From Varroa destructor (taxonomy: Eukaryota > Arthropoda > Arachnida > Mesostigmata > Varroidae), in NCBI RefSeq assembly GCF_002443255.2, contig NW_019211460.1, forward strand, positions 35,659,498 to 35,723,497: a DNA stretch of 64,000 bases, read 5' to 3'. The notes under the pieces are model-generated. The model was not told the DNA's origin, ran no database searches, and saw nothing but the letters and a program-made list of their open reading frames with translations. This document shows positions 24,601 to 50,547 of the stretch, in pieces; position 1 is the first letter of the stretch, and the number at the start of each line of letters is the position of its first letter. The translations under genes were made by a program, and so were the position numbers.

Positions 24601-26868
24601 ACCATAGATTCCATGAGCAGCACTTAAAGAGGTAACAGTATAGCGTCTACGCTATCGGAAGTCATATCTGTAAATAAATAGCGTGATTAGCCATCATACC
24701 CCGCCAACTAGCTTACGTGGAAAATGTAGACGCGTAAGCGGTTGAGATAAACGACTTAATCAGATGTGGTGGCACGGGCATAAAGGCTGGAGATGTCCCT
24801 TGGTTTCCATCTTGACAAACATCGTTTCCGCTAAATTCAATGGCATCATCGACATGGTCAAATTTTCTAGTGGGATTTCACACGACTGTTATAGTAAATG
24901 AACTTGAATAATTGCGTGTGTTAAAGCCCATAGATAAGACTTATCGTAGAATATTATTACTGCTGCTAGTATTTCCATAGACTCTTTCAAAACAATAAGA
25001 TGCAAACGATCAGCCACCAACGTGAGTCAGATCTGAGCTAACCCTAATCCTTGTTGAAAATTCGGATCTGTTCGATTTCCCATTGTATATTGAAAGTAAT
25101 AAACACCGTTTAAAAGTTTTTTTGATTTGAATTATCTTAAATTCACTGAGTCTAATACGTTAAAGGATAATCTCTGTCTACTATATCTTATATATCGTTT
25201 TTTTTCTTACTTTACTCAAATAGAAATTTGATGTTTTACTTAAGACAGGATTTGTAATATATCTAAACCAAACGTTCGTTCCTTTTGCCGGAACTATGAG
25301 CGACAAGTCTTACCATCTAGAAACTCAGCGACATCAAGACTGTCAAGGTTCCGTATCAGTGGTTAACGCTCCTATGCAGTGCTAACATAGTTCCGAAAGC
25401 AAAACTGTAAATATATATATATATATATATATTTTTTGACATATATTGAAATAGTGCAACCTGTTCTACTAGTGAAAAAAAAATTAGTTATATCTACCAA
25501 TTAGTATGTTATAGTACTGGGTTAAATTTTAAATGTTTATTGTAGTAAATGCAAGATTCAGTTGAGCAGTTGCGTTCGACAAGTTTATCCAAAATTTGTT
25601 GTACTCAATGAGCAATATTAAAATACGACTCGTAATTATTAGGCAATAACCTAGGTGAGGGTTCGCTTTCCCTTTAACGTCTCCACATTACTTCTATATA
25701 TTATTCGAGAGCGCTTTTTTTTCCTCTTTAAACGCGTTCTACCTTCACTGCTTAATGAACTGAATTTTACGTCAGGTTCAGACTTCATAAGTGTTTCTCG
25801 CTTCTTCATCTTGAATAGCTACTCTATTTCGCCTCTTATCAAGTCGAAAACCTGCCGAAGTAACTCCGAATATTTTTACCCTGTATAATGTAAGCCCGAT
25901 GTCTAGGAAAACTGCTTAAATGTGACCTGCAAAATTCTATAAAGACGCTGGAGCTCGAAGATACGCCCTGCATCGGTCGTTATTGAAAATATGTAAGGAC
26001 TGTCTAAAGGCACATCTAAGCAAAGACGACTGCAAAAGACCGCAAAGACTGTTATTTGGCCGAAAAGACGAACTGCGATTACGTAACTATTAAGAAGCAC
26101 CTTAAATTTATACAATTTTTTAAAAAAAGCCTGGCTACTTTATTAACTCAATGAGGGGTGCTAATAAAGACTTCTCGTTGTCTCTCAAGACCTAGAAAAT
26201 ACGCAATCGCTATGACAGGTTTCTATGTAGAATTACGTCACGTATGAATAGAAGGACCTTCGATACGAAGCAGAGAATAGAATGGATAGCTTTGGGGACC
26301 ACGTTTAAGCCTAATGTTAAGTCAGATCTCTGGACTTGAGCGTATCTCGTAAAACAATGATTTGCGTTTGGTGGGACTGGAAGGGTCTTATATAGTGGGA
26401 AATGGTTGATAAGCACAAGAAGGTAGATAGAGATCTGCATATAGACCAGTTGCATTCATTGAGTGGGCTCTGCAGCACAAAAGGCCCGATTGATAATGCA
26501 AAGGCACCCTTTACCACGACAGTGCCCCGCAGGCCAGTCATAGCAAAGACTGATGAAGCTGCCAGCATGAAAGGACACCATAAGTCGGAGCTTTTTTCTG
26601 CACCCGCTATACTCTCTAAATCCTATGATGACGTATTACCACTTCTTCCAACCATCAGTTAATGATGAAGAGTAACGGCTAATGCCTAATAATAATTATT
26701 GCAAGAATTTGACTGAAACTTCGCGTTTTTTTCGGTAGCTGAAAAGCTGTTCTTATTACTGTTGCAACCTAATAAATCTTTTCAGTGATTCGCTGCCATG
26801 TCTACTGATATGCCTCGGTGATTGTGTGACTTTTATAGTCTCTCGATATGTTAAATTAGTACGAATCG
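24600..26868. other. AT-rich non-coding stretch
   Basis: No gene is recognised. Overlapping frames at 26210-26455 (minus), 26317-26568 (minus) and 26402-26662 (plus) have no known motif. The AT microsatellite at 25411-25432 lies inside. Confidence 0.55.
25411..25432. repeat. (AT)11 microsatellite
   Basis: Eleven uninterrupted AT units followed by a T run. It is a simple repeat. Confidence 0.9.
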
Positions 26869-26869
26869 T

Positions 26870-26926
26870 ATTCTACAGTCGATCTTTAGACGTACTTTAC
26901 GTACGTCTAAAGATCGACTGTAGAAT
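26870..26926. repeat. Perfect 26-bp inverted repeat with 5-base loop
   Basis: The left arm (26870-26895) and right arm (26901-26926) are exact reverse complements over 26 bases, separated by the loop TTTAC. Pairing stops abruptly on both sides. As RNA from either strand this would fold into a fully paired stem. Animal pre-miRNAs normally have mismatches and larger loops, so a microRNA is not the first guess. A foldback made by template switching during replication, a small palindromic insertion, or an assembly or library foldback are all possible. A CAT run (26927-26935) follows the right arm directly. No known arthropod microRNA seed was recognised. Confidence 0.9.
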
Positions 26927-27512: not shown

Positions 27513-27538
27513 TGTCTTGAAGATGTGTTGGTCTGATT

Positions 27539-27934
27539 TTACTGCGTTTCTACTGCGAAGTGTGCAATCATCTCAAAAGTCAAATCGTTCCCCGTCGTCA
27601 AACAGCATTCTTCAGCTACGAACCTGTTATTACCGAACGGATTGACTTGTATTGCCACTACCCGTTCTTTGGTAAGTGGAATCGGTCGATCTGTCGACGA
27701 CGTCTCTGTGCCTGGAAGAGGATGAACCTTTCGTATCCACGTTCCCGTTCCCGTTCGCGTCCCTGCTTGCAGAAGCAGCCGATGGGTTGTAGAAGAGCAA
27801 CTACCCCATCTTTCCAAAGAGGAAGTGTCAATTTCGTCATGATCTGCAATCGAATGTCGATACGACCTCGCAAAAGGAAACTCATTTTCCACTACTATCG
27901 CTAGCACTACCCCCTGTTTATTGCAATCCTTGTT
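27539..27934. other. Region open in several frames at the left end of unit A
   Basis: About 130 codons are open on the minus strand, 114 codons on the plus strand (27560-27904), and a further minus frame (27658-27885) is open as well. The longest minus frame has no ATG until near its C-terminus; it can only be opened at a GTG, so it would have to be a spliced exon to be real. The hexamer repeat CCCGTT gives Arg-Ser or Gly-Thr dipeptide runs in two frames. No domain is recognised. The same arrangement recurs at 37154-37549. Confidence 0.3.
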
Positions 27935-30900
27935 CTAGTCCAGTGTAGCAATCAGTCAATATCTACGTCCTCCTAAAATCATGCTCGAATTATGATCGTC
28001 TTGTCAACGACACAGTCTACCACAAATTAGCTTATCTTTGACATACGATTGCCTATTACTACCTACGAAAAACGGCATTTACTATTTTTGAGCTACTTTA
28101 TATAAGGCTCTTATTGGGCATAGTTGACGCACAGATAAACCGTGTATGCAATATAGGCGTGCGGTAACGTCTTGTGAAAGATCTGCAGCGGTAGCTCAAC
28201 GACAGTAAAATCACCGCGATCCTGTTAGACTTCCGAAAGCTCTATTTGATAAAATAAACCAATCACCCATTATCAAGTAGAACCTTTGTGGACACACGTA
28301 TTATTCGATGTATATAATCGCCGGTTGGTTTTCTGTGTAAAGGCGGGGTGTACTCAAAACGCATTAGAATACACTATAGAATTTTGCATTATTCGTATTA
28401 GAAAAAATTGCATTTTTAGCTGGTTAATTTCTCTTCCTTGATAAGGTCAGTCGTGGGTCTTCATTATATAATAATATTAGCCATCAAGCCAACTCTTTGC
28501 CGCCAGGCTCATTCTTCGACTAGTATTCACGTTTATTCAGGCCGCAAACGAAAACGCTCTTTTGTTACAGCGTATGCTTGCAAGCTGGCGCAGTGTGAGT
28601 AGTGCGCGGCCGTTCATGTCCTGTTTGAAGTGCCTGACATATTCTATTCTACTTTTCGCGCACAAAGGGTCTCGATTTATCAAAAGATGCCCTTGTAAAA
28701 AGACTTCTGAACATCGATAGATGAACGTTCATTTTGATGAACAAAAATTCCTATTTTATATTAGCTGTGGTACTTCAAATTTATTTGGTGTACGACCCGC
28801 CATCTGCAGCTGTAGGCGATAATGTCAGCTGGAATAAACTTGGTACGTTTCGAGTTGTTCGATGTGCGGGATTACTTGCATCTGAAGACACTCCCGAATT
28901 GTTCATTCAGTGAAGGTAATCAATGATAAGCTTCCCTCCCGCGAGAGCCTTTCTTAGTTCTTTCCTGTGAAGTTTTTTTACATATATTTCTCAGTTTCTA
29001 AGGAACGCTATTCGGATAATCAAATCAATGCAAAGAGGCTGTCAGCTTGTTTATGAAAAGCAGATCTCCAGATGGTCTGTTACCGTTGAAAGGCAGAGGG
29101 TAGTGAATGCTGTCGGACAATACTGTTGCAGTTAAAAAAAACAAGATAATTGCTCAACGTTTTGGAACAGCAAAATTCAATGTAGTGCCTTTATATTTTA
29201 GAAAAAATCACGGGAATTATCTTTCTGTGTGCACTAATGTCGTAGTACAAATTTATCACTTATTTAATTTTTTCTTACTAATTCCTACTCGCGTACTTGT
29301 GGTAACGCTTATTTTCACTGTCCACTACGTTTCAGCACACTGTGAACTAAACAGTTCCTCTGGACTTTCTCCTCCATCATTCGCTTATTGCGGTATAGAA
29401 GCTTCTTGGAGGAAGCTTCCTTTCGGTGTAGAAGATTAGCGCAAGCGGCTTTTTAGAAGGAAAGGATCATATCCGTATCAATTAAATATTGGGTTAAACA
29501 GTTGTTATATTTTCATCAAATTCACAAATTTTTCTTAAATAGTTGCCAGTAATAGATATTCTCACTCGAATACTGTAATCCTTTTTGGGCGGAGATCCTC
29601 TTCGATTCTGAGCTGTGCAATAGCGAACAATTATTTTTTCTTGGTGACAAATCTGTGAAGAAATCAGTTTAACGTTAAGTTAATCAGTTGATAGTTCACA
29701 TAAACTATCCTCGACAAGATTTTGTATAGCGACAGCTGGTCTGTCCTTTGGTCGTCGACATTCAGTCGGTGCGTGGGGTAGCCAGCATTAGTGTTTTTAT
29801 GAGTACCCTATTGAGTGTAACCGAGTCCTCGTTGTCGCCAGGCAATAGTACAACCTTTCAGCCAATTCACTAGTCATTTAGCATCTTGAGACAATCTTCT
29901 TTAAATCTGAACATCTGCCCACGCCACAAAGATTTATCAACAGCCGCTTCGAAATTTTATAAGCAGCTGGTCTTTCCGAGATAAAATTTTTTTCCATAGA
30001 TGGCACAAATTACTTCAACTACTTCACATGGAGCTTAACGAAGCTCGTCTCTCCGAGACGACCCTTTCCGGGACTTAGCCTCCCCTGTTCAGGACGGACC
30101 ATACAAACTAATAGAAGACGCCAGGAGCTTTTCAATAGTAAGCTGCGCTAAGCACACACGAAAGGAACAGTGTAAACAGAAAGTATTTGAAAAAAAAAAG
30201 CGATCTACCAGTCAACGCTGAAGAATACGTACAAGCTAGTGTGAGTGTTAAGTAACTTTTATAGGATCTATTTAGCAAAATCGTAAAATTAAGGTCACCA
30301 TTAGTGTGACTAATTTAGCGATCTACTACATATCTCAAGCGTGATATATAGAATATAGCATGGGTTACGATTATAAGTCTGAACCTAGAACTATACCATA
30401 TCTTCAGAAGCTACAAGTTTGATACATCTAAACTAAGGCTATATGTAAATTGCGTTCAGTAACGAAGCAGTCGTGTTCAAATCCTAAACTTGTTCTTCCG
30501 TGCTCGCGATATATTCGTATTAGGAATAAACAACCGATTTGCAATATGTCGCTATTTCGCCTGAGCGCATACGCCGTAGTACGTTTTTATTGCCTAACGG
30601 CATGCCCGGGTACATTTTATATGGTGCAAATAGTCTTCAATGAATTAAGCAGATCTTATCGCCTTGCCCTAAGTGACAAACCAGCTGTTTCTATAGCAAT
30701 CGCTTACATACTAGACATATCAAAAACTCTACTAAATAAAACTATTATATCTATCATTATGATATATATATCTACGAAACGTATGTCAAGACAGGGTCAC
30801 CTGTGGTGTGTATACATATATTTAAGGCAATGACAACTCGTAGGGCAACACGTAACTGAAATCACTGAAGAACTCAATTAGGGCTCCGTTTAGCGAAGTC

Positions 30901-32546
30901 TCACCCCTTAGCTTTTTAAGAGATATAGAAAGTACTATAAAATATGGATGATCAAAACGCAGGCAGATTCTGATAAACTGTCTTAACAGCTTGATATAAG
31001 TATTAATTGCAGAACTGAAACTAAAATTTGAAACATTACTAGATAGTAACACATTATCCATCGACCTCGTTAGAAGGTTAAGTACCTCGAGAGAAAGTTA
31101 AGTAAACGACAGAGAGCGCGTGTATAAGAGCTGAGACAGGCACAGTTGTTAAAATAATTCGCTGACAAGTTCTTTCGCTCTCCATCTCCAAGTAGTGACA
31201 TGCCCAAATACCATTATCAGCTCTGAATATCGATCCGGCGACCTAATCTGTATATATGTACATTATGAAAAAAGAAAAATGAGCAAGACAAATCATTATC
31301 GACCCATTTGTAAGGTTGTCAGGGATAAAAAATGTAAAAGGGAAAATGTAATACCGGCCTAAATGCAACAGCAGAGCCGGCACCACAATGGAAAAAAGAA
31401 ATTACTGGCTATTCCTCAAAGGGGAATGACTGCTATGAGAACCGATTTTCTGGACAATCAGACATCTTTAAGATAAAAAATCATAGTGATAACAAAGCTG
31501 CCTCAATTACTGGTGGAAACATTTATCAAGTAGGAACCATTAGAACAGCTCATTTGATGTGACTCACTCGCGATACCCTTTCGGTGGCAAATACTGGGCT
31601 ATTGGCCCAATAATGAGGATTAAAAATCATAAAAGGACATTTATATTTTGTACTAGAGCAGACGCAGGAATAGATAGATACTAGCTATATGATTGCAATT
31701 AATCGTCACAGCATGGCTAGGCACAACTTTCTGTAATTAACTTGAATCTATACTTACTATATTGCCGGCTAAGTATACAGGTCGCTTCGGCACACAGTCA
31801 ATGTTTACAAGATTACGAGACGCGCTGATTGCGCTATCCAGTGGCATCCATCCGTCCATAGAATTCAACAATCCAAGCAATTCTATTCCTGGCGGAGCAG
31901 GAAGTTAAGTATAACGAGTATAAATTACGTATATAAAAAATCTACTTGATAACTCCAATAAATAAAGAGGAAAAGTAATAAGAGAAAAATATAATCAACA
32001 TCTGGAGAAATAATTAAAATTTGTCACGGCTAGGCCTTAGACAGTGTACACGAGCGCAATCACAAGGTTAGATAACTAACTCCCAAACACTAATTTAGGC
32101 TTGAAAAGAACAGGCCTACGGCACAACAGTACTCGTTCGTTGATGAGATGTTTATCGTGCAAGAGCCCCAAAAAGTTACTTCGACAACCTTAAACGAACC
32201 TTTAAGGGATCTACCTCATACACCGCGGCCGAAGCAACGACCACTGCAATAGCCTCGTATCGCTGGAGCTAACGTCAATATTAGTCCCTCGACGAGCAAT
32301 GACTTTCGTAATTTTTTTCAGAGCATGTATTATACAATATATATGGTTAAAAACACCAACATGGCGGCATGTTCATGAGGACGGTATTCCAATAAAAGGC
32401 AGGTGCGTTGAAGGTTGCAGTTTGTTGCGTGGCTTCCAATTATCTTCACTTGAACTCGTTTAGGCTTCCTCTTTAAAAGCCTTTAAAGGGATTCCATCCA
32501 AACTTCTTTTGAATTTTGAATCAAATTGAAGTGAAAAAGCAGATGG

Positions 32547-32950
32547 ATGTACATTATGTTGCGTAGCGGCAAAACAGCTTCTGGCATTGCCGCCGCTCTA
32601 CCTGTTCATTCCTATACGCCGTCTTCTTTTCCGCACAATTTCTATCTGCTCTTCTGTAGCCTTTTTCCGTTGACGCTTTTGCTACTGCTGGCACTACTGC
32701 AGCTACCGCGATGCCAGCCGCTTTTCGAGGCAGCATTAGCTGAGGCTGAGACAGGGCCGTCGGTAGCGGTGGCGGTTAAGTTTCGAACAACGAACAGCAA
32801 TCAGTCGGAGGTTGATTGGGGTTTAGGGTGAAAAAAGCTGGGAGAAAGAGCAGGCGGAAAGGTTGAGTGACGGCCAAACAGAAGTCTAATCAGGGGCGAC
32901 GTACAAAGGAGTGGACCTACAAGCTAAAGAAACGGCCCAAATCACCACAC
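32547..32950. other. GC-richer patch in unit A with a hydrophobic small open frame
   Basis: A 94-codon ATG frame at 32547-32831 has a leucine-rich hydrophobic stretch at about residues 32-54 that could pass for a membrane anchor. An opposite frame (32554-32736) is also open. CTG/GCC-rich DNA gives leucine and alanine runs readily, so I rate it unlikely to be a gene. The copy in the second unit A starts at 42162. Confidence 0.2.
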
Positions 32951-35780
32951 ACTAAACAGCCACTTGTATTCTACCACTACTGCTGAGGGATCAAGGAGTT
33001 GAACCATCGAAAAACTGCTCAACAACAGTAACAATGAAACGAAGAATGATTACATTTCAAAGTTGAACCGCAGCTGTGACATCTTCGCTCCCAGGCCCTC
33101 ATAATGCCGCCAGCCATGGGTTACAGTTTATATGGACGCGCTAAAACGGAGTAATCGAACGAGCAAAAATTATTAAACAAGTAAAAGGCATATATGAGGA
33201 AATACGACGATTGATGCTGTTTATTGCGATGATTTCTGTATGTTTAATTTGCTCACGAATATCTCTAAATAGGGAAGCTTTGTCTCACGCATCTATCATC
33301 ATAATGCTTGAGAAAATTTAAAAATAAGTGCACCTAATGACAAGCAGCAACGCCTACTGCGAACGTTCACCACATGATTTGTGTAAGCTTACCGTTGGCG
33401 TTTGTTCCCAGTAGTTGATTGTTTTAGGAAAGGATATCGCGCCTATCCTTCACAGGATCGACTGCACATAAACGATATTGATGTGCTGCGGGACAGTGAT
33501 CAACTGAATTATTATTATTAGTTAATTAATTAAATTGAACGCCAACGATAAAAGACCACGTCTAAATTTCAATACATTCAAGACTTGTTACTGTTCGAAG
33601 ATCAAGTTAATGAGAACTTGGATAGAAGACTTCTGCGAGATACTAATTAACATGCATTAAAAACAGGGCCAGCAATTGTATTTCCTCCAAATAACGTAAT
33701 CGGGCGTATTCAATATGGGGTAACGAGTATCAACCAATACAAAGGAAGCAGCTATTTTTTTTTGCCAAAAACAGGAAAGCAGTTTCTCTAAAAGCGACAG
33801 TTATTCCGATAACGGTCGGATTACTGGCATATAGGACGAATGTTCTGGTTGTGTGCAGTAGTAAATTTAGGTAAGCCATTTGCAGTAGGATGGGCCGAGA
33901 CATGGCCAGATACACGATCGCTTGGATTTTCCTCCCGTTAATGTGGTTAAAGTCAACCAGACAGGTAATGTTACATATTCGCGAAAGCCTACAATTATAA
34001 AATTAGAAGTCTTACCTCTTCGCAGCCCGGGCAGCCTTGTCGTAGATCTAGAAAATCGAATACGCTGCCACCTGCTTAATCAGGATGATGCTATTCAACC
34101 TATGAACGAAAAGCTGCATTTGTGCAATGCGCAAAGCCGATTGAGTAAACCTACTCAAGAATACGAAAATTTGTGTCGATGTTGAAAAATTTCTCGGCAG
34201 CCAGCCCAACTGTTGAAGAAAGGGCTAATCAACTGGCGAAAGAGTTCTTATATTCGCAGGCATCACTTCAATACCTCGTTATCGACGAGATAATGTAAAC
34301 GAAGATGGAAACAAGCAAAAATCACAGGAATCTGGTAAATTTATTCCGACTTCATCATGGTCACATCGGCGTTAGTTTCCATTAAGCAGTCCCCTTCGCA
34401 ACACTCGTTACAAGCGTCTTCTAAAACTTGGCGTACTAGAAACTCAACAATCGTAGCTGTTAACTTTTATAGGTCGCCGATGCATGTAGGAACTGAGTCT
34501 TGGCCTTTAGCAATATCGGTTGCTATTAGTAAGAAGGTAAAAATCAATGTAAACAATATACGTATAGTGCAATGGATGTATAGGCTCACACGACAACCTG
34601 AAGGTTTGTCCAACTGAGGTTGTCCTAAGTGTACCGACAAAAAATATTCTAGTAAAGCTTTTTTCGCTGATAATACTTTGCGCAGTTGCGTTTAATATTA
34701 AAAAAAAAAAAGAATACCAAATACGATTAGGTAACTAATAGGAAAATTGGAACGACGCCGAAGTAGGCTTCATGGAAGTTGATGAAGACGCATAAGGTAT
34801 TACGTGAACAACCTGAAGCCATCCAGTGAAACAGCTATATTTTATATCTCAGATTTACATATGTGCGGAGGTATAAGCAATGAACCAGAAGTAGCAGTAC
34901 AAGTATTTTTAGCAAAAATCCAGACAATTCATGAGCATTGAATAGTGATGTTATCTTCTGCATAATCTTATTATCGGCGCAATGATTTGGGCAACTAAAG
35001 CTCTGAGTGGAAAAAGCTGGAAGTTGAAAGCTCAAACCCCGGCAGTGATATCGATTATACAACAACTGTGATTAAAGAATGTAGGTACGACCTGCTCAAT
35101 TTAACCATATATATCTCTAAACGGGTTACGTTTTTTTGTGTGTTTATTTCGAAGGCGGAAAGTTATTCGGGCTGACTACCATAGGAAGATAACGGTAGCA
35201 TTAGTAAATATCACCCGACCATCAGTTCATGGCCTACTGTGAATAACGGTTGCTTAATTGTGAAGTTAACTGAATTCGACTAATGAAGTACTGAGTCATT
35301 CGCAGTACTCTCAGCAGCAGTCACAAAGTCGAAATCCTAACGGCTAGACAGGTAAATGATCTTTTTTTGACAGTGAATACCTTATCAGTTAAGGTAATAA
35401 TGTACCGTAATAACTTGCTCTCTATATTTACATATATAGGGCATAATTTAAGCGATTGATATGGATGAATCATGCTACGGTTACAGAATGGCCGGCATAC
35501 ATAATGGCTTTATTTCTGCCTATCGTACATTTTATTGCTGGAGTTCGGCAATTAGAGGAAGGAACATTTGTCGAAGCAGTAATAACCCTGATAATGTCCT
35601 GCGGTTCCGTGCTCGGTATTCCCTATTATCCAAGACAGTAAGCCTTTGGCTAAGCAGTATCTATAATCCGGGATCCAAAGTAGCTCTAAATATAGCAGAT
35701 ATGCACCGCAGTTGTATTCTTCGTTGGTATAAATCCCTTGGTAATAGCATGCTAGGTGCCATATTTTTTTTTATGTGCTC

Positions 35781-35824
35781 AACAAAAAAGGTTAGGCTTA
35801 CAAACAAAAAAGGTGCTAGGCTTA
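35781..35824. repeat. Imperfect 20-22 bp tandem duplication
   Basis: The units at 35781-35800 and 35803-35824 both begin AACAAAAAAGGT and end TAGGCTTA, differing by a two-base insertion (GC) in the second. It looks like a small replication-slippage duplication. It recurs in the second copy of A, 9,615 bases later. Confidence 0.8.
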
Positions 35825-36912
35825 AGCTGCCAGCTCGTTGTATCTGTTGCTTCTACTAGCAATATCATTCTGTGGCAATCTCTTTAATTTGAGTTGATCA
35901 GGCCCACTTGGTCAGGAACCATCTTTAAGGACCTCGAGTTCCGCTTTTACCGACAGATCTGAAAACGAATAGTTCGAGAATTGGGCGTACAATTAGATTA
36001 CCTGAGATGGCAGGAATCAGTACGTAAAGTGATGAAACAACTCAAAAATATGGCTGTTTTTATTGTTCTCGAATTGATGCCCTATAGACAAAGAAAAAAA
36101 CAACAAAACATTCACTTGAAACAAACGCTAAAAGCTCCGTCCAGCACGTACCGCTTTAAATGGGTTCAGTTTATTGTGGCCAGCAAACATCTCTGGATAC
36201 GATCAAATCGCTCTCAAGGCTTTCACCCCAAACCGTCCCCTTTTCCGACGAGGCTTGCATACGGTTCGCAGTACCTATAGCAGTATTATATTGTGTTTGT
36301 GGACAAAAGTTTCTTATCGTAATTCTCAGCAAAGCTTTTCAGCTCGATACTCGGTTATTATACTTTACGCACGTCTTTAGCGCTAACGTTGTGGAAAAAA
36401 AGGTGCTATTTCATCTTTTTTTACTAGTTATTTTTATTAATTAGTTTGCCCACTTCCAGGCTCGATTATGAAAGAGCTCAAATATGACTCATATAACGAA
36501 TGCTACACTCAGTAAAGTTTGAGCCATTCTTTGCCCTGAAGCGGAAAATTAGCTTAGCCTTAGAGCACTGCTGTGCCGGTATCACTGTGATACTTCTCGT
36601 TCTGGCAACAAAACGGTGCTAACATATTCACAACTGAACGAGACATTTCCAGTAAAGAAAATCATCTGAGGCAACACTTTCGGCATGGAAGTTGCATTGG
36701 CATTCGTTGCTGAATTATTGGTGGCATAGTTGTCGTCATTTGGCATCTTCTGTCACCTCTTCTAGACTGAGAACGTCATGCTCTCTAACCGTTGTACCGA
36801 GTCAACAAAACGTCTCTTTGTCATTGTGCTCAGCGATTCGTGCTTAGCCAAACGATAAGCTACGAATATTAGTGAACTGCCATCTTGTCATAAACGACTA
36901 TAGCGCCATCTA

Positions 36913-37127
36913 AAGTTAGCGAGGAGGAGGAGGAGGAGGAGGAGGAGGAGGAGGGTGAAAAGCCCATTGGACTTTGCGGTACGGCGATGACTCATCGGTC
37001 TGCGTGTATGTGCCATTGTATGATGGGCTATGACCTTGGAATTTGATCAAAATTGCCAAAGTCACGATCGTCGTATGGGCATAAAAAGTGACTCGATTTA
37101 AATTCGTTTATTGCCATCTTGAGCAGT
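36913..37127. repeat. Segment S, first copy (215 bp, with GGA microsatellite)
   Basis: It begins AAGTTAGCG, contains a pure GGA tract at about 36921-36955 (35 bases), and ends TTGAGCAGT. The same segment recurs at 48428-48672 with a longer tract. Outside the tract the two copies appear identical. Here it is flanked by unit A on both sides; in the second copy it is flanked by unit B on both sides. The natural context, A then S then B, can be read from the A-S join here and the S-B join at 48672. Confidence 0.95.
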
Positions 37128-40100
37128 TGTCTTGAAGATGTGTTGGTCTGATTTTACTGCGTTTCTACTGCGAAGTGTGCAATCATCTCAAAAGTCAAAT
37201 CGTTCCCCGTCGTCAAACAGCATTCTTCAGCTACGAACCTGTTATTACCGAACGGATTGACTTGTATTGCCACTACCCGTTCTTTGGTAAGTGGAATCGG
37301 TCGATCTGTCGACGACGTCTCTGTGCCTGGAAGAGGATGAACCTTTCGTATCCACGTTCCCGTTCCCGTTCGCGTCCCTGCTTGCAGAAGCAGCCGATGG
37401 GTTGTAGAAGAGCAACTACCCCATCTTTCCAAAGAGGAAGTGTCAATTTCGTCATGATCTGCAATCGAATGTCGATACGACCTCGCAAAAGGAAACTCAT
37501 TTTCCACTACTATCGCTAGCACTACCCCCTGTTTATTGCAATCCTTGTTCTAGTCCAGTGTAGCAATCAGTCAATATCTACGTCCTCCTAAAATCATGCT
37601 CGAATTATGATCGTCTTGTCAACGACACAGTCTACCACAAATTAGCTTATCTTTGACATACGATTGCCTATTACTACCTACGAAAAACGGCATTTACTAT
37701 TTTTGAGCTACTTTATATAAGGCTCTTATTGGGCATAGTTGACGCACAGATAAACCGTGTATGCAATATAGGCGTGCGGTAACGTCTTGTGAAAGATCTG
37801 CAGCGGTAGCTCAACGACAGTAAAATCACCGCGATCCTGTTAGACTTCCGAAAGCTCTATTTGATAAAATAAACCAATCACCCATTATCAAGTAGAACCT
37901 TTGTGGACACACGTATTATTCGATGTATATAATCGCCGGTTGGTTTTCTGTGTAAAGGCGGGGTGTACTCAAAACGCATTAGAATACACTATAGAATTTT
38001 GCATTATTCGTATTAGAAAAAATTGCATTTTTAGCTGGTTAATTTCTCTTCCTTGATAAGGTCAGTCGTGGGTCTTCATTATATAATAATATTAGCCATC
38101 AAGCCAACTCTTTGCCGCCAGGCTCATTCTTCGACTAGTATTCACGTTTATTCAGGCCGCAAACGAAAACGCTCTTTTGTTACAGCGTATGCTTGCAAGC
38201 TGGCGCAGTGTGAGTAGTGCGCGGCCGTTCATGTCCTGTTTGAAGTGCCTGACATATTCTATTCTACTTTTCGCGCACAAAGGGTCTCGATTTATCAAAA
38301 GATGCCCTTGTAAAAAGACTTCTGAACATCGATAGATGAACGTTCATTTTGATGAACAAAAATTCCTATTTTATATTAGCTGTGGTACTTCAAATTTATT
38401 TGGTGTACGACCCGCCATCTGCAGCTGTAGGCGATAATGTCAGCTGGAATAAACTTGGTACGTTTCGAGTTGTTCGATGTGCGGGATTACTTGCATCTGA
38501 AGACACTCCCGAATTGTTCATTCAGTGAAGGTAATCAATGATAAGCTTCCCTCCCGCGAGAGCCTTTCTTAGTTCTTTCCTGTGAAGTTTTTTTACATAT
38601 ATTTCTCAGTTTCTAAGGAACGCTATTCGGATAATCAAATCAATGCAAAGAGGCTGTCAGCTTGTTTATGAAAAGCAGATCTCCAGATGGTCTGTTACCG
38701 TTGAAAGGCAGAGGGTAGTGAATGCTGTCGGACAATACTGTTGCAGTTAAAAAAAACAAGATAATTGCTCAACGTTTTGGAACAGCAAAATTCAATGTAG
38801 TGCCTTTATATTTTAGAAAAAATCACGGGAATTATCTTTCTGTGTGCACTAATGTCGTAGTACAAATTTATCACTTATTTAATTTTTTCTTACTAATTCC
38901 TACTCGCGTACTTGTGGTAACGCTTATTTTCACTGTCCACTACGTTTCAGCACACTGTGAACTAAACAGTTCCTCTGGACTTTCTCCTCCATCATTCGCT
39001 TATTGCGGTATAGAAGCTTCTTGGAGGAAGCTTCCTTTCGGTGTAGAAGATTAGCGCAAGCGGCTTTTTAGAAGGAAAGGATCATATCCGTATCAATTAA
39101 ATATTGGGTTAAACAGTTGTTATATTTTCATCAAATTCACAAATTTTTCTTAAATAGTTGCCAGTAATAGATATTCTCACTCGAATACTGTAATCCTTTT
39201 TGGGCGGAGATCCTCTTCGATTCTGAGCTGTGCAATAGCGAACAATTATTTTTTCTTGGTGACAAATCTGTGAAGAAATCAGTTTAACGTTAAGTTAATC
39301 AGTTGATAGTTCACATAAACTATCCTCGACAAGATTTTGTATAGCGACAGCTGGTCTGTCCTTTGGTCGTCGACATTCAGTCGGTGCGTGGGGTAGCCAG
39401 CATTAGTGTTTTTATGAGTACCCTATTGAGTGTAACCGAGTCCTCGTTGTCGCCAGGCAATAGTACAACCTTTCAGCCAATTCACTAGTCATTTAGCATC
39501 TTGAGACAATCTTCTTTAAATCTGAACATCTGCCCACGCCACAAAGATTTATCAACAGCCGCTTCGAAATTTTATAAGCAGCTGGTCTTTCCGAGATAAA
39601 ATTTTTTTCCATAGATGGCACAAATTACTTCAACTACTTCACATGGAGCTTAACGAAGCTCGTCTCTCCGAGACGACCCTTTCCGGGACTTAGCCTCCCC
39701 TGTTCAGGACGGACCATACAAACTAATAGAAGACGCCAGGAGCTTTTCAATAGTAAGCTGCGCTAAGCACACACGAAAGGAACAGTGTAAACAGAAAGTA
39801 TTTGAAAAAAAAAAGCGATCTACCAGTCAACGCTGAAGAATACGTACAAGCTAGTGTGAGTGTTAAGTAACTTTTATAGGATCTATTTAGCAAAATCGTA
39901 AAATTAAGGTCACCATTAGTGTGACTAATTTAGCGATCTACTACATATCTCAAGCGTGATATATAGAATATAGCATGGGTTACGATTATAAGTCTGAACC
40001 TAGAACTATACCATATCTTCAGAAGCTACAAGTTTGATACATCTAAACTAAGGCTATATGTAAATTGCGTTCAGTAACGAAGCAGTCGTGTTCAAATCCT

Positions 40101-43100
40101 AAACTTGTTCTTCCGTGCTCGCGATATATTCGTATTAGGAATAAACAACCGATTTGCAATATGTCGCTATTTCGCCTGAGCGCATACGCCGTAGTACGTT
40201 TTTATTGCCTAACGGCATGCCCGGGTACATTTTATATGGTGCAAATAGTCTTCAATGAATTAAGCAGATCTTATCGCCTTGCCCTAAGTGACAAACCAGC
40301 TGTTTCTATAGCAATCGCTTACATACTAGACATATCAAAAACTCTACTAAATAAAACTATTATATCTATCATTATGATATATATATCTACGAAACGTATG
40401 TCAAGACAGGGTCACCTGTGGTGTGTATACATATATTTAAGGCAATGACAACTCGTAGGGCAACACGTAACTGAAATCACTGAAGAACTCAATTAGGGCT
40501 CCGTTTAGCGAAGTCTCACCCCTTAGCTTTTTAAGAGATATAGAAAGTACTATAAAATATGGATGATCAAAACGCAGGCAGATTCTGATAAACTGTCTTA
40601 ACAGCTTGATATAAGTATTAATTGCAGAACTGAAACTAAAATTTGAAACATTACTAGATAGTAACACATTATCCATCGACCTCGTTAGAAGGTTAAGTAC
40701 CTCGAGAGAAAGTTAAGTAAACGACAGAGAGCGCGTGTATAAGAGCTGAGACAGGCACAGTTGTTAAAATAATTCGCTGACAAGTTCTTTCGCTCTCCAT
40801 CTCCAAGTAGTGACATGCCCAAATACCATTATCAGCTCTGAATATCGATCCGGCGACCTAATCTGTATATATGTACATTATGAAAAAAGAAAAATGAGCA
40901 AGACAAATCATTATCGACCCATTTGTAAGGTTGTCAGGGATAAAAAATGTAAAAGGGAAAATGTAATACCGGCCTAAATGCAACAGCAGAGCCGGCACCA
41001 CAATGGAAAAAAGAAATTACTGGCTATTCCTCAAAGGGGAATGACTGCTATGAGAACCGATTTTCTGGACAATCAGACATCTTTAAGATAAAAAATCATA
41101 GTGATAACAAAGCTGCCTCAATTACTGGTGGAAACATTTATCAAGTAGGAACCATTAGAACAGCTCATTTGATGTGACTCACTCGCGATACCCTTTCGGT
41201 GGCAAATACTGGGCTATTGGCCCAATAATGAGGATTAAAAATCATAAAAGGACATTTATATTTTGTACTAGAGCAGACGCAGGAATAGATAGATACTAGC
41301 TATATGATTGCAATTAATCGTCACAGCATGGCTAGGCACAACTTTCTGTAATTAACTTGAATCTATACTTACTATATTGCCGGCTAAGTATACAGGTCGC
41401 TTCGGCACACAGTCAATGTTTACAAGATTACGAGACGCGCTGATTGCGCTATCCAGTGGCATCCATCCGTCCATAGAATTCAACAATCCAAGCAATTCTA
41501 TTCCTGGCGGAGCAGGAAGTTAAGTATAACGAGTATAAATTACGTATATAAAAAATCTACTTGATAACTCCAATAAATAAAGAGGAAAAGTAATAAGAGA
41601 AAAATATAATCAACATCTGGAGAAATAATTAAAATTTGTCACGGCTAGGCCTTAGACAGTGTACACGAGCGCAATCACAAGGTTAGATAACTAACTCCCA
41701 AACACTAATTTAGGCTTGAAAAGAACAGGCCTACGGCACAACAGTACTCGTTCGTTGATGAGATGTTTATCGTGCAAGAGCCCCAAAAAGTTACTTCGAC
41801 AACCTTAAACGAACCTTTAAGGGATCTACCTCATACACCGCGGCCGAAGCAACGACCACTGCAATAGCCTCGTATCGCTGGAGCTAACGTCAATATTAGT
41901 CCCTCGACGAGCAATGACTTTCGTAATTTTTTTCAGAGCATGTATTATACAATATATATGGTTAAAAACACCAACATGGCGGCATGTTCATGAGGACGGT
42001 ATTCCAATAAAAGGCAGGTGCGTTGAAGGTTGCAGTTTGTTGCGTGGCTTCCAATTATCTTCACTTGAACTCGTTTAGGCTTCCTCTTTAAAAGCCTTTA
42101 AAGGGATTCCATCCAAACTTCTTTTGAATTTTGAATCAAATTGAAGTGAAAAAGCAGATGGATGTACATTATGTTGCGTAGCGGCAAAACAGCTTCTGGC
42201 ATTGCCGCCGCTCTACCTGTTCATTCCTATACGCCGTCTTCTTTTCCGCACAATTTCTATCTGCTCTTCTGTAGCCTTTTTCCGTTGACGCTTTTGCTAC
42301 TGCTGGCACTACTGCAGCTACCGCGATGCCAGCCGCTTTTCGAGGCAGCATTAGCTGAGGCTGAGACAGGGCCGTCGGTAGCGGTGGCGGTTAAGTTTCG
42401 AACAACGAACAGCAATCAGTCGGAGGTTGATTGGGGTTTAGGGTGAAAAAAGCTGGGAGAAAGAGCAGGCGGAAAGGTTGAGTGACGGCCAAACAGAAGT
42501 CTAATCAGGGGCGACGTACAAAGGAGTGGACCTACAAGCTAAAGAAACGGCCCAAATCACCACACACTAAACAGCCACTTGTATTCTACCACTACTGCTG
42601 AGGGATCAAGGAGTTGAACCATCGAAAAACTGCTCAACAACAGTAACAATGAAACGAAGAATGATTACATTTCAAAGTTGAACCGCAGCTGTGACATCTT
42701 CGCTCCCAGGCCCTCATAATGCCGCCAGCCATGGGTTACAGTTTATATGGACGCGCTAAAACGGAGTAATCGAACGAGCAAAAATTATTAAACAAGTAAA
42801 AGGCATATATGAGGAAATACGACGATTGATGCTGTTTATTGCGATGATTTCTGTATGTTTAATTTGCTCACGAATATCTCTAAATAGGGAAGCTTTGTCT
42901 CACGCATCTATCATCATAATGCTTGAGAAAATTTAAAAATAAGTGCACCTAATGACAAGCAGCAACGCCTACTGCGAACGTTCACCACATGATTTGTGTA
43001 AGCTTACCGTTGGCGTTTGTTCCCAGTAGTTGATTGTTTTAGGAAAGGATATCGCGCCTATCCTTCACAGGATCGACTGCACATAAACGATATTGATGTG

Positions 43101-46100
43101 CTGCGGGACAGTGATCAACTGAATTATTATTATTAGTTAATTAATTAAATTGAACGCCAACGATAAAAGACCACGTCTAAATTTCAATACATTCAAGACT
43201 TGTTACTGTTCGAAGATCAAGTTAATGAGAACTTGGATAGAAGACTTCTGCGAGATACTAATTAACATGCATTAAAAACAGGGCCAGCAATTGTATTTCC
43301 TCCAAATAACGTAATCGGGCGTATTCAATATGGGGTAACGAGTATCAACCAATACAAAGGAAGCAGCTATTTTTTTTTGCCAAAAACAGGAAAGCAGTTT
43401 CTCTAAAAGCGACAGTTATTCCGATAACGGTCGGATTACTGGCATATAGGACGAATGTTCTGGTTGTGTGCAGTAGTAAATTTAGGTAAGCCATTTGCAG
43501 TAGGATGGGCCGAGACATGGCCAGATACACGATCGCTTGGATTTTCCTCCCGTTAATGTGGTTAAAGTCAACCAGACAGGTAATGTTACATATTCGCGAA
43601 AGCCTACAATTATAAAATTAGAAGTCTTACCTCTTCGCAGCCCGGGCAGCCTTGTCGTAGATCTAGAAAATCGAATACGCTGCCACCTGCTTAATCAGGA
43701 TGATGCTATTCAACCTATGAACGAAAAGCTGCATTTGTGCAATGCGCAAAGCCGATTGAGTAAACCTACTCAAGAATACGAAAATTTGTGTCGATGTTGA
43801 AAAATTTCTCGGCAGCCAGCCCAACTGTTGAAGAAAGGGCTAATCAACTGGCGAAAGAGTTCTTATATTCGCAGGCATCACTTCAATACCTCGTTATCGA
43901 CGAGATAATGTAAACGAAGATGGAAACAAGCAAAAATCACAGGAATCTGGTAAATTTATTCCGACTTCATCATGGTCACATCGGCGTTAGTTTCCATTAA
44001 GCAGTCCCCTTCGCAACACTCGTTACAAGCGTCTTCTAAAACTTGGCGTACTAGAAACTCAACAATCGTAGCTGTTAACTTTTATAGGTCGCCGATGCAT
44101 GTAGGAACTGAGTCTTGGCCTTTAGCAATATCGGTTGCTATTAGTAAGAAGGTAAAAATCAATGTAAACAATATACGTATAGTGCAATGGATGTATAGGC
44201 TCACACGACAACCTGAAGGTTTGTCCAACTGAGGTTGTCCTAAGTGTACCGACAAAAAATATTCTAGTAAAGCTTTTTTCGCTGATAATACTTTGCGCAG
44301 TTGCGTTTAATATTAAAAAAAAAAAAGAATACCAAATACGATTAGGTAACTAATAGGAAAATTGGAACGACGCCGAAGTAGGCTTCATGGAAGTTGATGA
44401 AGACGCATAAGGTATTACGTGAACAACCTGAAGCCATCCAGTGAAACAGCTATATTTTATATCTCAGATTTACATATGTGCGGAGGTATAAGCAATGAAC
44501 CAGAAGTAGCAGTACAAGTATTTTTAGCAAAAATCCAGACAATTCATGAGCATTGAATAGTGATGTTATCTTCTGCATAATCTTATTATCGGCGCAATGA
44601 TTTGGGCAACTAAAGCTCTGAGTGGAAAAAGCTGGAAGTTGAAAGCTCAAACCCCGGCAGTGATATCGATTATACAACAACTGTGATTAAAGAATGTAGG
44701 TACGACCTGCTCAATTTAACCATATATATCTCTAAACGGGTTACGTTTTTTTGTGTGTTTATTTCGAAGGCGGAAAGTTATTCGGGCTGACTACCATAGG
44801 AAGATAACGGTAGCATTAGTAAATATCACCCGACCATCAGTTCATGGCCTACTGTGAATAACGGTTGCTTAATTGTGAAGTTAACTGAATTCGACTAATG
44901 AAGTACTGAGTCATTCGCAGTACTCTCAGCAGCAGTCACAAAGTCGAAATCCTAACGGCTAGACAGGTAAATGATCTTTTTTTGACAGTGAATACCTTAT
45001 CAGTTAAGGTAATAATGTACCGTAATAACTTGCTCTCTATATTTACATATATAGGGCATAATTTAAGCGATTGATATGGATGAATCATGCTACGGTTACA
45101 GAATGGCCGGCATACATAATGGCTTTATTTCTGCCTATCGTACATTTTATTGCTGGAGTTCGGCAATTAGAGGAAGGAACATTTGTCGAAGCAGTAATAA
45201 CCCTGATAATGTCCTGCGGTTCCGTGCTCGGTATTCCCTATTATCCAAGACAGTAAGCCTTTGGCTAAGCAGTATCTATAATCCGGGATCCAAAGTAGCT
45301 CTAAATATAGCAGATATGCACCGCAGTTGTATTCTTCGTTGGTATAAATCCCTTGGTAATAGCATGCTAGGTGCCATATTTTTTTTTATGTGCTCAACAA
45401 AAAAGGTTAGGCTTACAAACAAAAAAGGTGCTAGGCTTAAGCTGCCAGCTCGTTGTATCTGTTGCTTCTACTAGCAATATCATTCTGTGGCAATCTCTTT
45501 AATTTGAGTTGATCAGGCCCACTTGGTCAGGAACCATCTTTAAGGACCTCGAGTTCCGCTTTTACCGACAGATCTGAAAACGAATAGTTCGAGAATTGGG
45601 CGTACAATTAGATTACCTGAGATGGCAGGAATCAGTACGTAAAGTGATGAAACAACTCAAAAATATGGCTGTTTTTATTGTTCTCGAATTGATGCCCTAT
45701 AGACAAAGAAAAAAACAACAAAACATTCACTTGAAACAAACGCTAAAAGCTCCGTCCAGCACGTACCGCTTTAAATGGGTTCAGTTTATTGTGGCCAGCA
45801 AACATCTCTGGATACGATCAAATCGCTCTCAAGGCTTTCACCCCAAACCGTCCCCTTTTCCGACGAGGCTTGCATACGGTTCGCAGTACCTATAGCAGTA
45901 TTATATTGTGTTTGTGGACAAAAGTTTCTTATCGTAATTCTCAGCAAAGCTTTTCAGCTCGATACTCGGTTATTATACTTTACGCACGTCTTTAGCGCTA
46001 ACGTTGTGGAAAAAAAGGTGCTATTTCATCTTTTTTTACTAGTTATTTTTATTAATTAGTTTGCCCACTTCCAGGCTCGATTATGAAAGAGCTCAAATAT

Positions 46101-46527
46101 GACTCATATAACGAATGCTACACTCAGTAAAGTTTGAGCCATTCTTTGCCCTGAAGCGGAAAATTAGCTTAGCCTTAGAGCACTGCTGTGCCGGTATCAC
46201 TGTGATACTTCTCGTTCTGGCAACAAAACGGTGCTAACATATTCACAACTGAACGAGACATTTCCAGTAAAGAAAATCATCTGAGGCAACACTTTCGGCA
46301 TGGAAGTTGCATTGGCATTCGTTGCTGAATTATTGGTGGCATAGTTGTCGTCATTTGGCATCTTCTGTCACCTCTTCTAGACTGAGAACGTCATGCTCTC
46401 TAACCGTTGTACCGAGTCAACAAAACGTCTCTTTGTCATTGTGCTCAGCGATTCGTGCTTAGCCAAACGATAAGCTACGAATATTAGTGAACTGCCATCT
46501 TGTCATAAACGACTATAGCGCCATCTA
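37128..46527. repeat. Unit A, second copy (9,400 bp)
   Basis: An exact direct repeat of 27513-36912, shifted by 9,615. It starts immediately after segment S with no shared bases at the join and stops at the exact base where the first copy meets S. At that point the sequence becomes a run of N. Its contents are those of the first copy and carry no recognised gene. Confidence 0.95.
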
Positions 46528-46552
46528 NNNNNNNNNNNNNNNNNNNNNNNNN
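46528..46552. other. Assembly gap, 25 N
   Basis: Twenty-five undetermined bases separate the last base of unit A from the first base of unit B. In the complete version of this junction the 215-245 bp segment S occupies this place. The gap therefore stands for S and its length is a placeholder, not a measurement. Confidence 0.98.
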
Positions 46553-47103
46553 GGTGGTAACAAACTTAACTTTTGGCACGTTTTCATATACACCTATTTA
46601 GACTCATTGAAAATGAGTGTCAACGTTTTATGTGGACTGAAATATCTCAGCCGTATGTTGTCCACAATCAGAGAAGCAACACCCGTACGTATCACAATGA
46701 AAAAAACAATTCGAGGAATAAAGGATGGTAAAATAAAGCCACATGGTAAAATTAATATTAAAACCTATGTAGCACAGAAAAACTGAGTCTCAGCAGAAAA
46801 CTGAAAGCGCTACTCTGATTATCTTCCTACTGCAAAAAAATATTGTCTCATTGTATAACAGCATTAAGGAATCTTGAAAATTACACCTCAGAGTATGCTC
46901 ACTTCATATCATATACTCACTGGACCTTGAGTACGCGACCCGAAATACGATATTTTATATTAGACCCACTGTTTATTTGAACGTGCTGCTCGTTTTCGGA
47001 AAATATTAACTCTTAGAAAATAGAATTTATCGGTTCTTTTTTTGTACGCCATCTTACCTACGCCGCATCTATATATTTAGTTATGAATCACACTTTACTT
47101 TCG

Positions 47104-47119
47104 GAGCAGACGTCTGCTC
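47104..47119. repeat. 16-bp perfect palindrome
   Basis: GAGCAGACGTCTGCTC reads identically on both strands and is followed by a further GTCTGCTTCTGC. It could be a symmetric protein-binding site or chance. The second copy is at 49224-49239. Confidence 0.7.
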
Positions 47120-47730
47120 GTCTGCTTCTGCAAACTTTCGCTCAGGAAGCTAACGAAGTCGACATGTACATCCACTCATCAGCGTACGGCGTACGGTTGC
47201 ACTAGCTACATCGAAAATATCAGACGTGCTCACAAGCAGCTGTCGTCTGTCAGATAAACTTCTATCACGTTATCTACATATAGACTGTACAATCATATTT
47301 CTATTGTCGGCCTTTTTTTCCGGCCTAGCACATACGCTATTGTGATACGAATACAAGTCGTAGTAATGGGCTGATGATTATGGCAATAGATTCAGCAAGA
47401 CGCCTCTTGCTAGTTTCAGGAATCGGTATCGAAAAATGTTTACGCGATGATTGGTCAGATCGAAGCAACTTACTTGTGATGCGATCACGATATGTCTGGT
47501 TTTCAGGTTAAAAAGTTCAATGCAATCAAGTTCTAGCAGGTGCAGCATACGAATTCGGCTGGTAGTAACGTTGTAAAAATTCGCACCGTTGTGTAGCATA
47601 GAAAAGACTACCACAGCGAACAAACAACCGTTCACTCTATCCCTAACCGTTGTTTTCATTCGATATCAAAATATGAATAGGTCGAACAAAGGTGTCTGGA
47701 CAAGGTCATTCGTAGACTTAGTCCTATTCA

Positions 47731-47757
47731 AATAAAGCAGTATTGTATTGTATTGTA
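47731..47757 (+). mobile_element. Possible 3' end of a truncated non-LTR retrotransposon
   Basis: A polyadenylation signal AATAAA (47731-47736) is followed four bases later by a short TATTG tandem tail, TATTGTATTGTATTGTA. Several arthropod LINE families end this way. No reverse transcriptase frame is visible upstream, so at most this would be a 5'-truncated copy. A simple pentanucleotide repeat next to a chance AATAAA would look the same. Confidence 0.3.
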
Positions 47758-48427
47758 TGTAGCTGTATAATATTAAAACCTACGCTCGTCTATTGCTTTC
47801 TCACTTCGCCGCATTCTAGACTGTCAAGGGCCTATTTGCCGTTTGTTGTTACGACGATTCAGCCACCTTCTGTTCTGGAACGCGTCTCTAAGGAATGACG
47901 AGAGAGGATACGTTTTACGATCCGGTATTTCACCGAAGCGGGATATGAGGATACACGGCAATGATGTATTTGAGTAGGAATTAGATCCTAACATGGGATA
48001 AAGTATATATCATCTAACTGGTTAGAAAATACCTCTAGAACCTGTAGAAAAGCTATACGCGGGTTTTATCTAAGAGAAAGACAGATTTTTTTTATTAGAA
48101 AACGTTGGGAAGCCAATGACAAAACTCGGACAAGCATTCCTTCTTATGGCCAATTCTGCCATCTATTTAATCTAATAGCTTGATTTAGGCAGCCGGATAA
48201 TCTCCGCTCTCTGCAGTTCAGAGTTCTATTAAAAATCGGATTTTTCAAAGCCACGTCCTCAATCCACTAGAAGCCGCATAATAAAATTTGACTGCTAAAG
48301 ATATTATAGTCAAAGGTAGTGATTGCGATTATTATTCGTTTACGTATATAAGAAGTACAGAACTATGAAACAGTTCTTACAGCTTAAGTTGCTAGGGGCA
48401 TCCCCTAAGTATGCTTCTCAAAGACTC

Positions 48428-48672
48428 AAGTTAGCGAGGAGGAGGAGGAGGAGGAGGGGGAGGAGGAGGAGGAGGAGGAGGAGGAGGAGGAGGAGGAGGG
48501 TGAAAAGCCCATTGGACTTTGCGGTACGGCGATGACTCATCGGTCTGCGTGTATGTGCCATTGTATGATGGGCTATGACCTTGGAATTTGATCAAAATTG
48601 CCAAAGTCACGATCGTCGTATGGGCATAAAAAGTGACTCGATTTAAATTCGTTTATTGCCATCTTGAGCAGT
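48428..48672. repeat. Segment S, second copy (245 bp, with longer GGA microsatellite)
   Basis: Same ends and same non-repeat sequence as 36913-37127. The GGA tract spans about 48436-48500 (65 bases), which is 30 bases longer. It contains one interruption near 48456-48460, where a GGGGG run replaces GGAGG. It is flanked by unit B on both sides. The plus-strand purine tract can form G-rich secondary structure. Confidence 0.95.
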
Positions 48673-50547
48673 GGTGGTAACAAACTTAACTTTTGGCACG
48701 TTTTCATATACACCTATTTAGACTCATTGAAAATGAGTGTCAACGTTTTATGTGGACTGAAATATCTCAGCCGTATGTTGTCCACAATCAGAGAAGCAAC
48801 ACCCGTACGTATCACAATGAAAAAAACAATTCGAGGAATAAAGGATGGTAAAATAAAGCCACATGGTAAAATTAATATTAAAACCTATGTAGCACAGAAA
48901 AACTGAGTCTCAGCAGAAAACTGAAAGCGCTACTCTGATTATCTTCCTACTGCAAAAAAATATTGTCTCATTGTATAACAGCATTAAGGAATCTTGAAAA
49001 TTACACCTCAGAGTATGCTCACTTCATATCATATACTCACTGGACCTTGAGTACGCGACCCGAAATACGATATTTTATATTAGACCCACTGTTTATTTGA
49101 ACGTGCTGCTCGTTTTCGGAAAATATTAACTCTTAGAAAATAGAATTTATCGGTTCTTTTTTTGTACGCCATCTTACCTACGCCGCATCTATATATTTAG
49201 TTATGAATCACACTTTACTTTCGGAGCAGACGTCTGCTCGTCTGCTTCTGCAAACTTTCGCTCAGGAAGCTAACGAAGTCGACATGTACATCCACTCATC
49301 AGCGTACGGCGTACGGTTGCACTAGCTACATCGAAAATATCAGACGTGCTCACAAGCAGCTGTCGTCTGTCAGATAAACTTCTATCACGTTATCTACATA
49401 TAGACTGTACAATCATATTTCTATTGTCGGCCTTTTTTTCCGGCCTAGCACATACGCTATTGTGATACGAATACAAGTCGTAGTAATGGGCTGATGATTA
49501 TGGCAATAGATTCAGCAAGACGCCTCTTGCTAGTTTCAGGAATCGGTATCGAAAAATGTTTACGCGATGATTGGTCAGATCGAAGCAACTTACTTGTGAT
49601 GCGATCACGATATGTCTGGTTTTCAGGTTAAAAAGTTCAATGCAATCAAGTTCTAGCAGGTGCAGCATACGAATTCGGCTGGTAGTAACGTTGTAAAAAT
49701 TCGCACCGTTGTGTAGCATAGAAAAGACTACCACAGCGAACAAACAACCGTTCACTCTATCCCTAACCGTTGTTTTCATTCGATATCAAAATATGAATAG
49801 GTCGAACAAAGGTGTCTGGACAAGGTCATTCGTAGACTTAGTCCTATTCAAATAAAGCAGTATTGTATTGTATTGTATGTAGCTGTATAATATTAAAACC
49901 TACGCTCGTCTATTGCTTTCTCACTTCGCCGCATTCTAGACTGTCAAGGGCCTATTTGCCGTTTGTTGTTACGACGATTCAGCCACCTTCTGTTCTGGAA
50001 CGCGTCTCTAAGGAATGACGAGAGAGGATACGTTTTACGATCCGGTATTTCACCGAAGCGGGATATGAGGATACACGGCAATGATGTATTTGAGTAGGAA
50101 TTAGATCCTAACATGGGATAAAGTATATATCATCTAACTGGTTAGAAAATACCTCTAGAACCTGTAGAAAAGCTATACGCGGGTTTTATCTAAGAGAAAG
50201 ACAGATTTTTTTTATTAGAAAACGTTGGGAAGCCAATGACAAAACTCGGACAAGCATTCCTTCTTATGGCCAATTCTGCCATCTATTTAATCTAATAGCT
50301 TGATTTAGGCAGCCGGATAATCTCCGCTCTCTGCAGTTCAGAGTTCTATTAAAAATCGGATTTTTCAAAGCCACGTCCTCAATCCACTAGAAGCCGCATA
50401 ATAAAATTTGACTGCTAAAGATATTATAGTCAAAGGTAGTGATTGCGATTATTATTCGTTTACGTATATAAGAAGTACAGAACTATGAAACAGTTCTTAC
50501 AGCTTAAGTTGCTAGGGGCATCCCCTAAGTATGCTTCTCAAAGACTC
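48673..50547. repeat. Unit B, second copy (1,875 bp)
   Basis: An exact direct repeat of 46553-48427, shifted by 2,120. It begins directly after segment S and ends at a blunt join to unique sequence at 50548. The copy of the possible retrotransposon tail is at 49851-49877. Confidence 0.95.

What the first reader, a model, noticed from the sequence alone, without database searches (positions are those of the whole stretch)
27513..50547. Mirrored double duplication A-S-A-N-B-S-B, best explained as a false duplication of a single A-S-B locus
Unit A (9,400 bp) occurs at 27513 and 37128, unit B (1,875 bp) at 46553 and 48673, and segment S at 36913 and 48428. Each pair has a constant offset and looked identical wherever compared. 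The left edges of the two A copies and the right edges of the two B copies have unrelated flanks, with no homology at the joins. The middle part (37128-48427) is A, then 25 N, then B: exactly the outer locus with S missing. Removing 37128-48672 gives a seamless A-S-B. This fits a gapped scaffold version being kept inside the gap-closed version at a microsatellite. If real, it would instead be two very recent tandem duplications (A-S and S-B) sharing one hinge.
Basis: partly seen in the sequence, partly recalled or inferred. Interest (0 to 1): 0.75.

Follow-up and report, generated by a model that had tools for sequence, protein, structure and literature searches.

The report
False assembly duplication around a gap
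A stretch of animal DNA appears doubled in mirror-like order around a 25-letter gap, most likely because the assembly kept both a gapped and a gap-filled copy of one locus, so it should not be read as a real duplication.

Summary
The layout L-A-S-A-N25-B-S-B-R is there at the stated coordinates. Both A copies (9,400 bp) and both B copies (1,875 bp) match without a mismatch, with no microhomology at the novel joins. Correction: the S copies are not identical. S1 (215 bp) and S2 (245 bp) differ only in a (GAG)n array, 33 vs 63 nt, S2 with one GGG unit. The gap has exactly the edges of S: A stops one base before S starts and B starts one base after S ends. Taking out one repeat leaves a contiguous A-S-B with no residual duplication. 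Best reading: a false duplication in which a gapped A-N-B piece was kept inside its own gap-filled version. A gap of exactly 25 N is what the gap filler PBJelly writes for short gaps (PMC6733440, passage), but the responsible tool is inferred, not shown. Real twin tandem duplications are not formally excluded: no reads were available, the species was not identified, and the home genome could not be searched (11 of 11 tries unanswered). An ordinary artefact of low biological interest, useful as a warning for copy-number work.

The parts
27513..36912 (+). unit A, copy 1 (9,400 bp)
   Evidence: 100% identical to 37128-46527; left neighbour does not match the sequence before copy 2
36913..37127 (+). 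segment S, copy 1 (215 bp), with a pure GAG array at 36921-36953
37128..46527 (+). unit A, copy 2, probably redundant
   Evidence: 100% identical to copy 1
46528..46552 (.). assembly gap of exactly 25 N, with the same edges as S
   Evidence: only N run in the window; edges compared
46553..48427 (+). unit B, copy 1 (1,875 bp), probably redundant
   Evidence: 100% identical to 48673-50547
48428..48672 (+). segment S, copy 2 (245 bp), with a longer interrupted GAG array at 48436-48498
48673..50547 (+). unit B, copy 2
   Evidence: 100% identical to copy 1; followed by unique flank R

Best explanation
This is a false duplication made during assembly. The genome most likely holds one locus L-A-S-B-R. 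An earlier, probably short-read, scaffold held A, a gap at the GAG microsatellite, and B. A later step supplied the missing segment S. Instead of replacing the gap, the output kept A-N25-B and placed it between A-S and S-B. S1 and S2 are then two renderings of the same segment, from different reads or from two alleles of a microsatellite. Shown: the exact layout and identities. Inferred: the history, and that a PBJelly-like gap filler wrote it.
For: A and B pairs have 0 mismatches over 11,275 bp. The gap edges coincide to the base with both S edges: the A|S boundary is marked independently by the B1|S2 join, and the S|B boundary by the S1|A2 join. The two novel joins lack microhomology. Taking out one repeat restores a contiguous locus with no residual repeat; if S2 is kept, only its microsatellite matches itself. 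The gap is exactly 25 N; PBJelly by default inflates gaps under 25 bp to exactly 25 bp (PMC6733440, passage) and treats 25 or more N as a gap (PMC3504050, passage). [quoted passage not shown] Gap filling with PBJelly raised duplicated single-copy genes from 95 to 105 in one fish assembly (PMC9635638, passages).
Against: By my reasoning, ordinary double extension of a gap by spanning reads would give A-S-B-N-A-S-B rather than A-S-A-N-B-S-B, so I cannot name the exact software step. A gap filler or scaffolder would normally leave N at unsupported joins, but S1|A2 and B1|S2 have none. The GAG arrays are only 33 and 63 nt, short enough for ordinary short reads to cross, so it is not obvious why a contig should have ended there. 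Perfect identity is also compatible with a real duplication up to roughly 13,000-130,000 generations old at assumed mutation rates of 1e-8 to 1e-9. No read depth, long reads, second assembly or home genome was examined.
Confidence: 0.93

Rival explanations
1. Real, very recent tandem duplications of A-S and of S-B next to each other, with a third S hidden in the gap (true order A-S-A-S-B-S-B). A graph assembler would then cut its pieces at the repeat boundaries, which would also explain why the gap edges equal the S edges.
For: The order can be written as two tandem duplications sharing S. Zero divergence allows a recent origin. S1 and S2 differ in array length, as slippage after duplication could give. 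The joins S|A and B|S carry no N.
Against: Needs two joining events without microhomology, both using an edge of the same 215-245 bp segment, both too young to carry any mismatch, and the window's one gap lying in exactly the third S. A single-history artefact explains all of it at once.
Confidence: 0.04
2. Mis-linearised haplotype bubble: two microsatellite alleles of S were used once each, A-S1 from one allele and S2-B from the other, with the gapped A-N-B left between them. This is a form of false duplication, so its probability lies within the 0.93 of the main explanation; the cause would be heterozygosity rather than a gap filler.
For: S1 and S2 differ exactly in the GAG array and by a substitution-type interruption, as two alleles would.
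Against: A and B show no heterozygous difference over 11,275 bp; a difference in the array alone can also come from read or consensus error.
Confidence: 0.25
3. A mobile element carried a second A or B.
For: A mariner transposase relic lies about 1 kb left of A1.
Against: The relic is outside both units. By eye, in the 80 bases each side of the edges printed, I saw no target-site duplication or terminal repeat; I ran no dedicated search at the edges. Pfam found no family inside A or B at E up to 0.05.
Confidence: 0.01

Closest known systems
False duplication beside an assembly gap, homotype class (PMC9516828, passages)
   Same: Adjacent identical copies with a gap among them; no difference between copies of A or of B that would mark two haplotypes
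   Different: That paper ascribes the homotype class to accumulated read errors and defines it by read depth and k-mers, which were not testable here. Here the copies are mirrored on both sides of the gap and the missing segment is written twice
PBJelly overfilled gap (PMC3504050, PMC9635638, passages)
   Same: A gap, here of exactly 25 N, remains although much sequence lies on both sides
   Different: Extension by spanning reads should put S-B before the gap and A-S after it; here A and B themselves border the gap
Heterotype false duplication (two alleles kept as paralogues; PMC9516828, passages)
   Same: The S copies differ as microsatellite alleles might
   Different: A and B do not differ at all

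Membership tests
False duplication in an assembly | Copies next to each other with an assembly gap between them | tested here: inconclusive
   A gap of 25 N lies in the middle of the structure, between A2 and B1; but the members of each pair (A1/A2 and B1/B2) are parted by S1 and by S2, not by the gap itself
False duplication in an assembly | Read depth in the copies below the level of correctly assembled sequence | not testable with these tools
   No reads available; the home-genome search was unanswered in 11 of 11 tries
False duplication in an assembly | Discordant or absent read linkage across the novel joins | not testable with these tools
   No reads available
False duplication in an assembly | Removing one copy gives a contiguous locus without residual repeat (my own criterion) | tested here: met
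PBJelly gap-fill product | Remaining gap of exactly 25 N | tested here: met
   signature from a passage of PMC6733440. Other programs may also write 25 N
PBJelly gap-fill product | Genome known to have been processed with PBJelly | not testable with these tools
   Species of the window not identified
PBJelly overfilled gap | New sequence reaching into the gap from each side is the continuation of the flanking contig | tested here: not met
   After S1 comes A again, not B; before S2 comes B, not A
Real tandem duplication | Junctions supported by single molecules | not testable with these tools
   No reads available

The most novel reading that the evidence does not exclude
Two very recent, real tandem duplications (A-S and S-B) share one microsatellite-bearing hinge S, so that S is present three times and acts as a breakage point from which DNA on both sides was copied.
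Probability: 0.04. Interest if true: 0.4.

Novelty: not a real feature. Interest (0 to 1): 0.1.

Why it matters
As biology it most likely does not exist. It matters as a recognisable error pattern: a gap whose edges coincide with the edges of a segment found intact on both sides, flanked by exact copies. The pattern can be searched for in any gap-filled assembly and would otherwise add about 11.5 kb of false copy number, hide variants through multi-mapping reads, and look like a recent segmental duplication.

Tried and rejected
Home genome: the same request to the genome search (where own) did not complete in 11 of 11 tries, so I could not ask whether other 25-N gaps in the same assembly show the same layout, which would have been decisive.

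Genes: six frames of L, one A copy, one B copy and R were scanned against Pfam with X at stops, E up to 0.05. One family was found, the mariner Transposase_1 relic in L. S, the second copies and stretches across the region edges were not scanned. No gene was available to show a broken exon order.

Organism: three protein searches. An ORF in A had 1 candidate, none at E up to 0.01. An ORF in R gave 1 protein of 318 candidates, P0001, 99% identical over 92%, a cluster standing for 11 contigs, longest 18,711 bp, source '-', the mark the tool uses for proteins that the window itself encodes. An ORF at 63541 gave 1 protein of 71 candidates, P0002, source 'lgn'. None names a species. P0001 in viral contigs: 12 pattern matches, none a relative; in genome contigs: 148 pattern matches, 1 weak relative (50% over residues 18-61) on a bacterial MAG contig, not pursued. 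A 39-base pattern at the end of A: 0 matches in viral contigs. These scans may leave out the window's own genome. From memory I suspected a Varroa mite because of G+C near 41% (counts) and a recalled use of PBJelly; PMC6773775 (passages) gives 40.9% GC and PBJelly for assembly Vdes_3.0, but nothing ties the window to that genome and I do not claim it.

Motif: ATAGCGCCATCTA at the end of A, up to 2 mismatches, gave 3 matches against 1.15 expected, reached by 14 of 100 shuffles: nothing.

Literature: seven searches; one search found no paper. Passages, not whole texts, were seen of nine papers: PMC9516828, PMC3504050, PMC4580222, PMC9635638, PMC8848313, PMC7757076, PMC6733440, PMC6618069, PMC6773775. 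I did not see this mirrored layout in those listings and passages; that is no proof that it is unpublished.

Grid idea: A, B and the gap are multiples of 25 bp, and A and N+B multiples of 100. Chance is 1 in 625 and 1 in 10,000, but the grids were chosen after seeing the lengths, and I found no step that would produce them.

Full report
What is there. The 64-kb window has one run of N, 25 long, at 46528-46552. A self-comparison finds two long exact direct repeats: A (27513-36912 and 37128-46527, 9,400 bp) and B (46553-48427 and 48673-50547, 1,875 bp), both with no mismatch, and a shorter pair S. The order is L-A-S1-A-N25-B-S2-B-R. At every edge the match stops abruptly: extension beyond the edges is 0 bp, and the two novel joins, S1|A2 and B1|S2, have 0 bp microhomology.

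S1 (215 bp) and S2 (245 bp) are not identical. They share the first 8 bp and the last 174 bp; between these lies a GAG array of 33 nt (pure) in S1 and 63 nt in S2, with one unit GGG instead of GAG. The S offset is thus 11,515 before the array and 11,545 after it.

The strongest argument. The inner block is A, gap, B. Its gap begins at the base where S begins and ends at the base where S ends. These positions are marked independently: the left edge of S by the B1|S2 join, the right edge by the S1|A2 join. If the outer repeats were real and the gap merely an unsequenced spot, the gap edges would have no reason to fall on both breakpoints. One way round this is a true third S inside the gap, with an assembler that cuts at repeat boundaries; this is kept as a rival. 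Taking out 37128-48672 or 36913-48427 leaves a contiguous locus of 52,455 or 52,485 bp with no residual direct repeat except the microsatellite against itself in the second case (plus strand, E up to 1e-5).

Why an assembly error. Exact identity over 11,275 bp, a gap inside the repeats, joins without homology, and a microsatellite in the missing segment point the same way. A gap of exactly 25 N is a default product of the gap filler PBJelly: the gapFinisher paper states that PBJelly inflates gaps under 25 bp to exactly 25 bp (PMC6733440, passage), and PBJelly's own paper defines gaps as 25 or more N (PMC3504050, passage). [quoted passage not shown] One fish assembly went from 95 to 105 duplicated single-copy genes when gap-filled with PBJelly (PMC9635638, passages).

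What does not fit neatly. By my reasoning, reads spanning the true locus and extending both sides of a gap would yield A-S-B-N-A-S-B. The observed order instead keeps A and B next to the gap and puts a full S outside each, without N at those joins. I therefore favour a bookkeeping error in which the gapped piece A-N-B was retained inside its filled version, but I cannot name the exact step. The GAG arrays are short enough for ordinary short reads to cross, so the reason for the original gap is not evident either. The lengths 9,400, 25 and 1,875 are all multiples of 25; this was noticed after the fact and stays unexplained.

Could it be real? Zero differences bound a real duplication to roughly 13,000-130,000 generations at assumed rates of 1e-8 to 1e-9, which is not impossible. 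Two such events sharing a hinge, with the window's only gap in the hinge's third copy, is a much longer chain of coincidences. I give it 4%, a judgement and not a computed value.

Surroundings. Pfam scans of six frames of L, one A copy, one B copy and R (stops as X; S and the second copies not scanned) gave one family: Transposase_1 at about 26348-26464 (searches gave none), a degraded mariner with weak matches to four distinct Mos1 sequences among solved structures (best E 0.00067). ARAGORN with bacterial settings found no tRNA and no Rfam family reached its gathering score. Together with the mariner relic this looks like noncoding animal DNA, an inference; the species was not identified. An ORF in R belongs to a protein cluster of 11 contigs of at most 18.7 kb, but A's ORF found nothing, so no independent copy of the locus could be compared.

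Verdict.

Noticed in passing
window 25635-26693: Degraded mariner-like element: Pfam Transposase_1 match at about 26348-26464 and a possible pair of 17-nt inverted ends, 88% complementary, at 25635-25651 and 26677-26693.
   Followed up: partly
window 26870-26926: Perfect 26-nt inverted repeat with 5 nt between the arms.
   Followed up: no
window 36878-36887 and 37112-37121 (and their copies at 46493 and 48657): The 10-mer TGCCATCTTG occurs near the end of A and the end of S and nowhere else on the + strand of the window; the other strand was not searched for it.
   Followed up: no
window 54625-55116: ORF matching the 150-aa protein P0001, a cluster of 11 contigs, longest 18,711 bp, source '-'; it may serve to identify the organism.
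   Followed up: partly
window 63541-63954: ORF with a relative P0002 (source 'lgn'): 99 of 105 aligned positions identical, with a 4-residue insertion and 2 substitutions, the N-terminal part not aligned; possibly an allele or a sister species.
   Followed up: partly
window 27513-50547: A (9,400), the gap (25) and B (1,875) are all multiples of 25 bp, seen after the fact and unexplained.
   Followed up: partly
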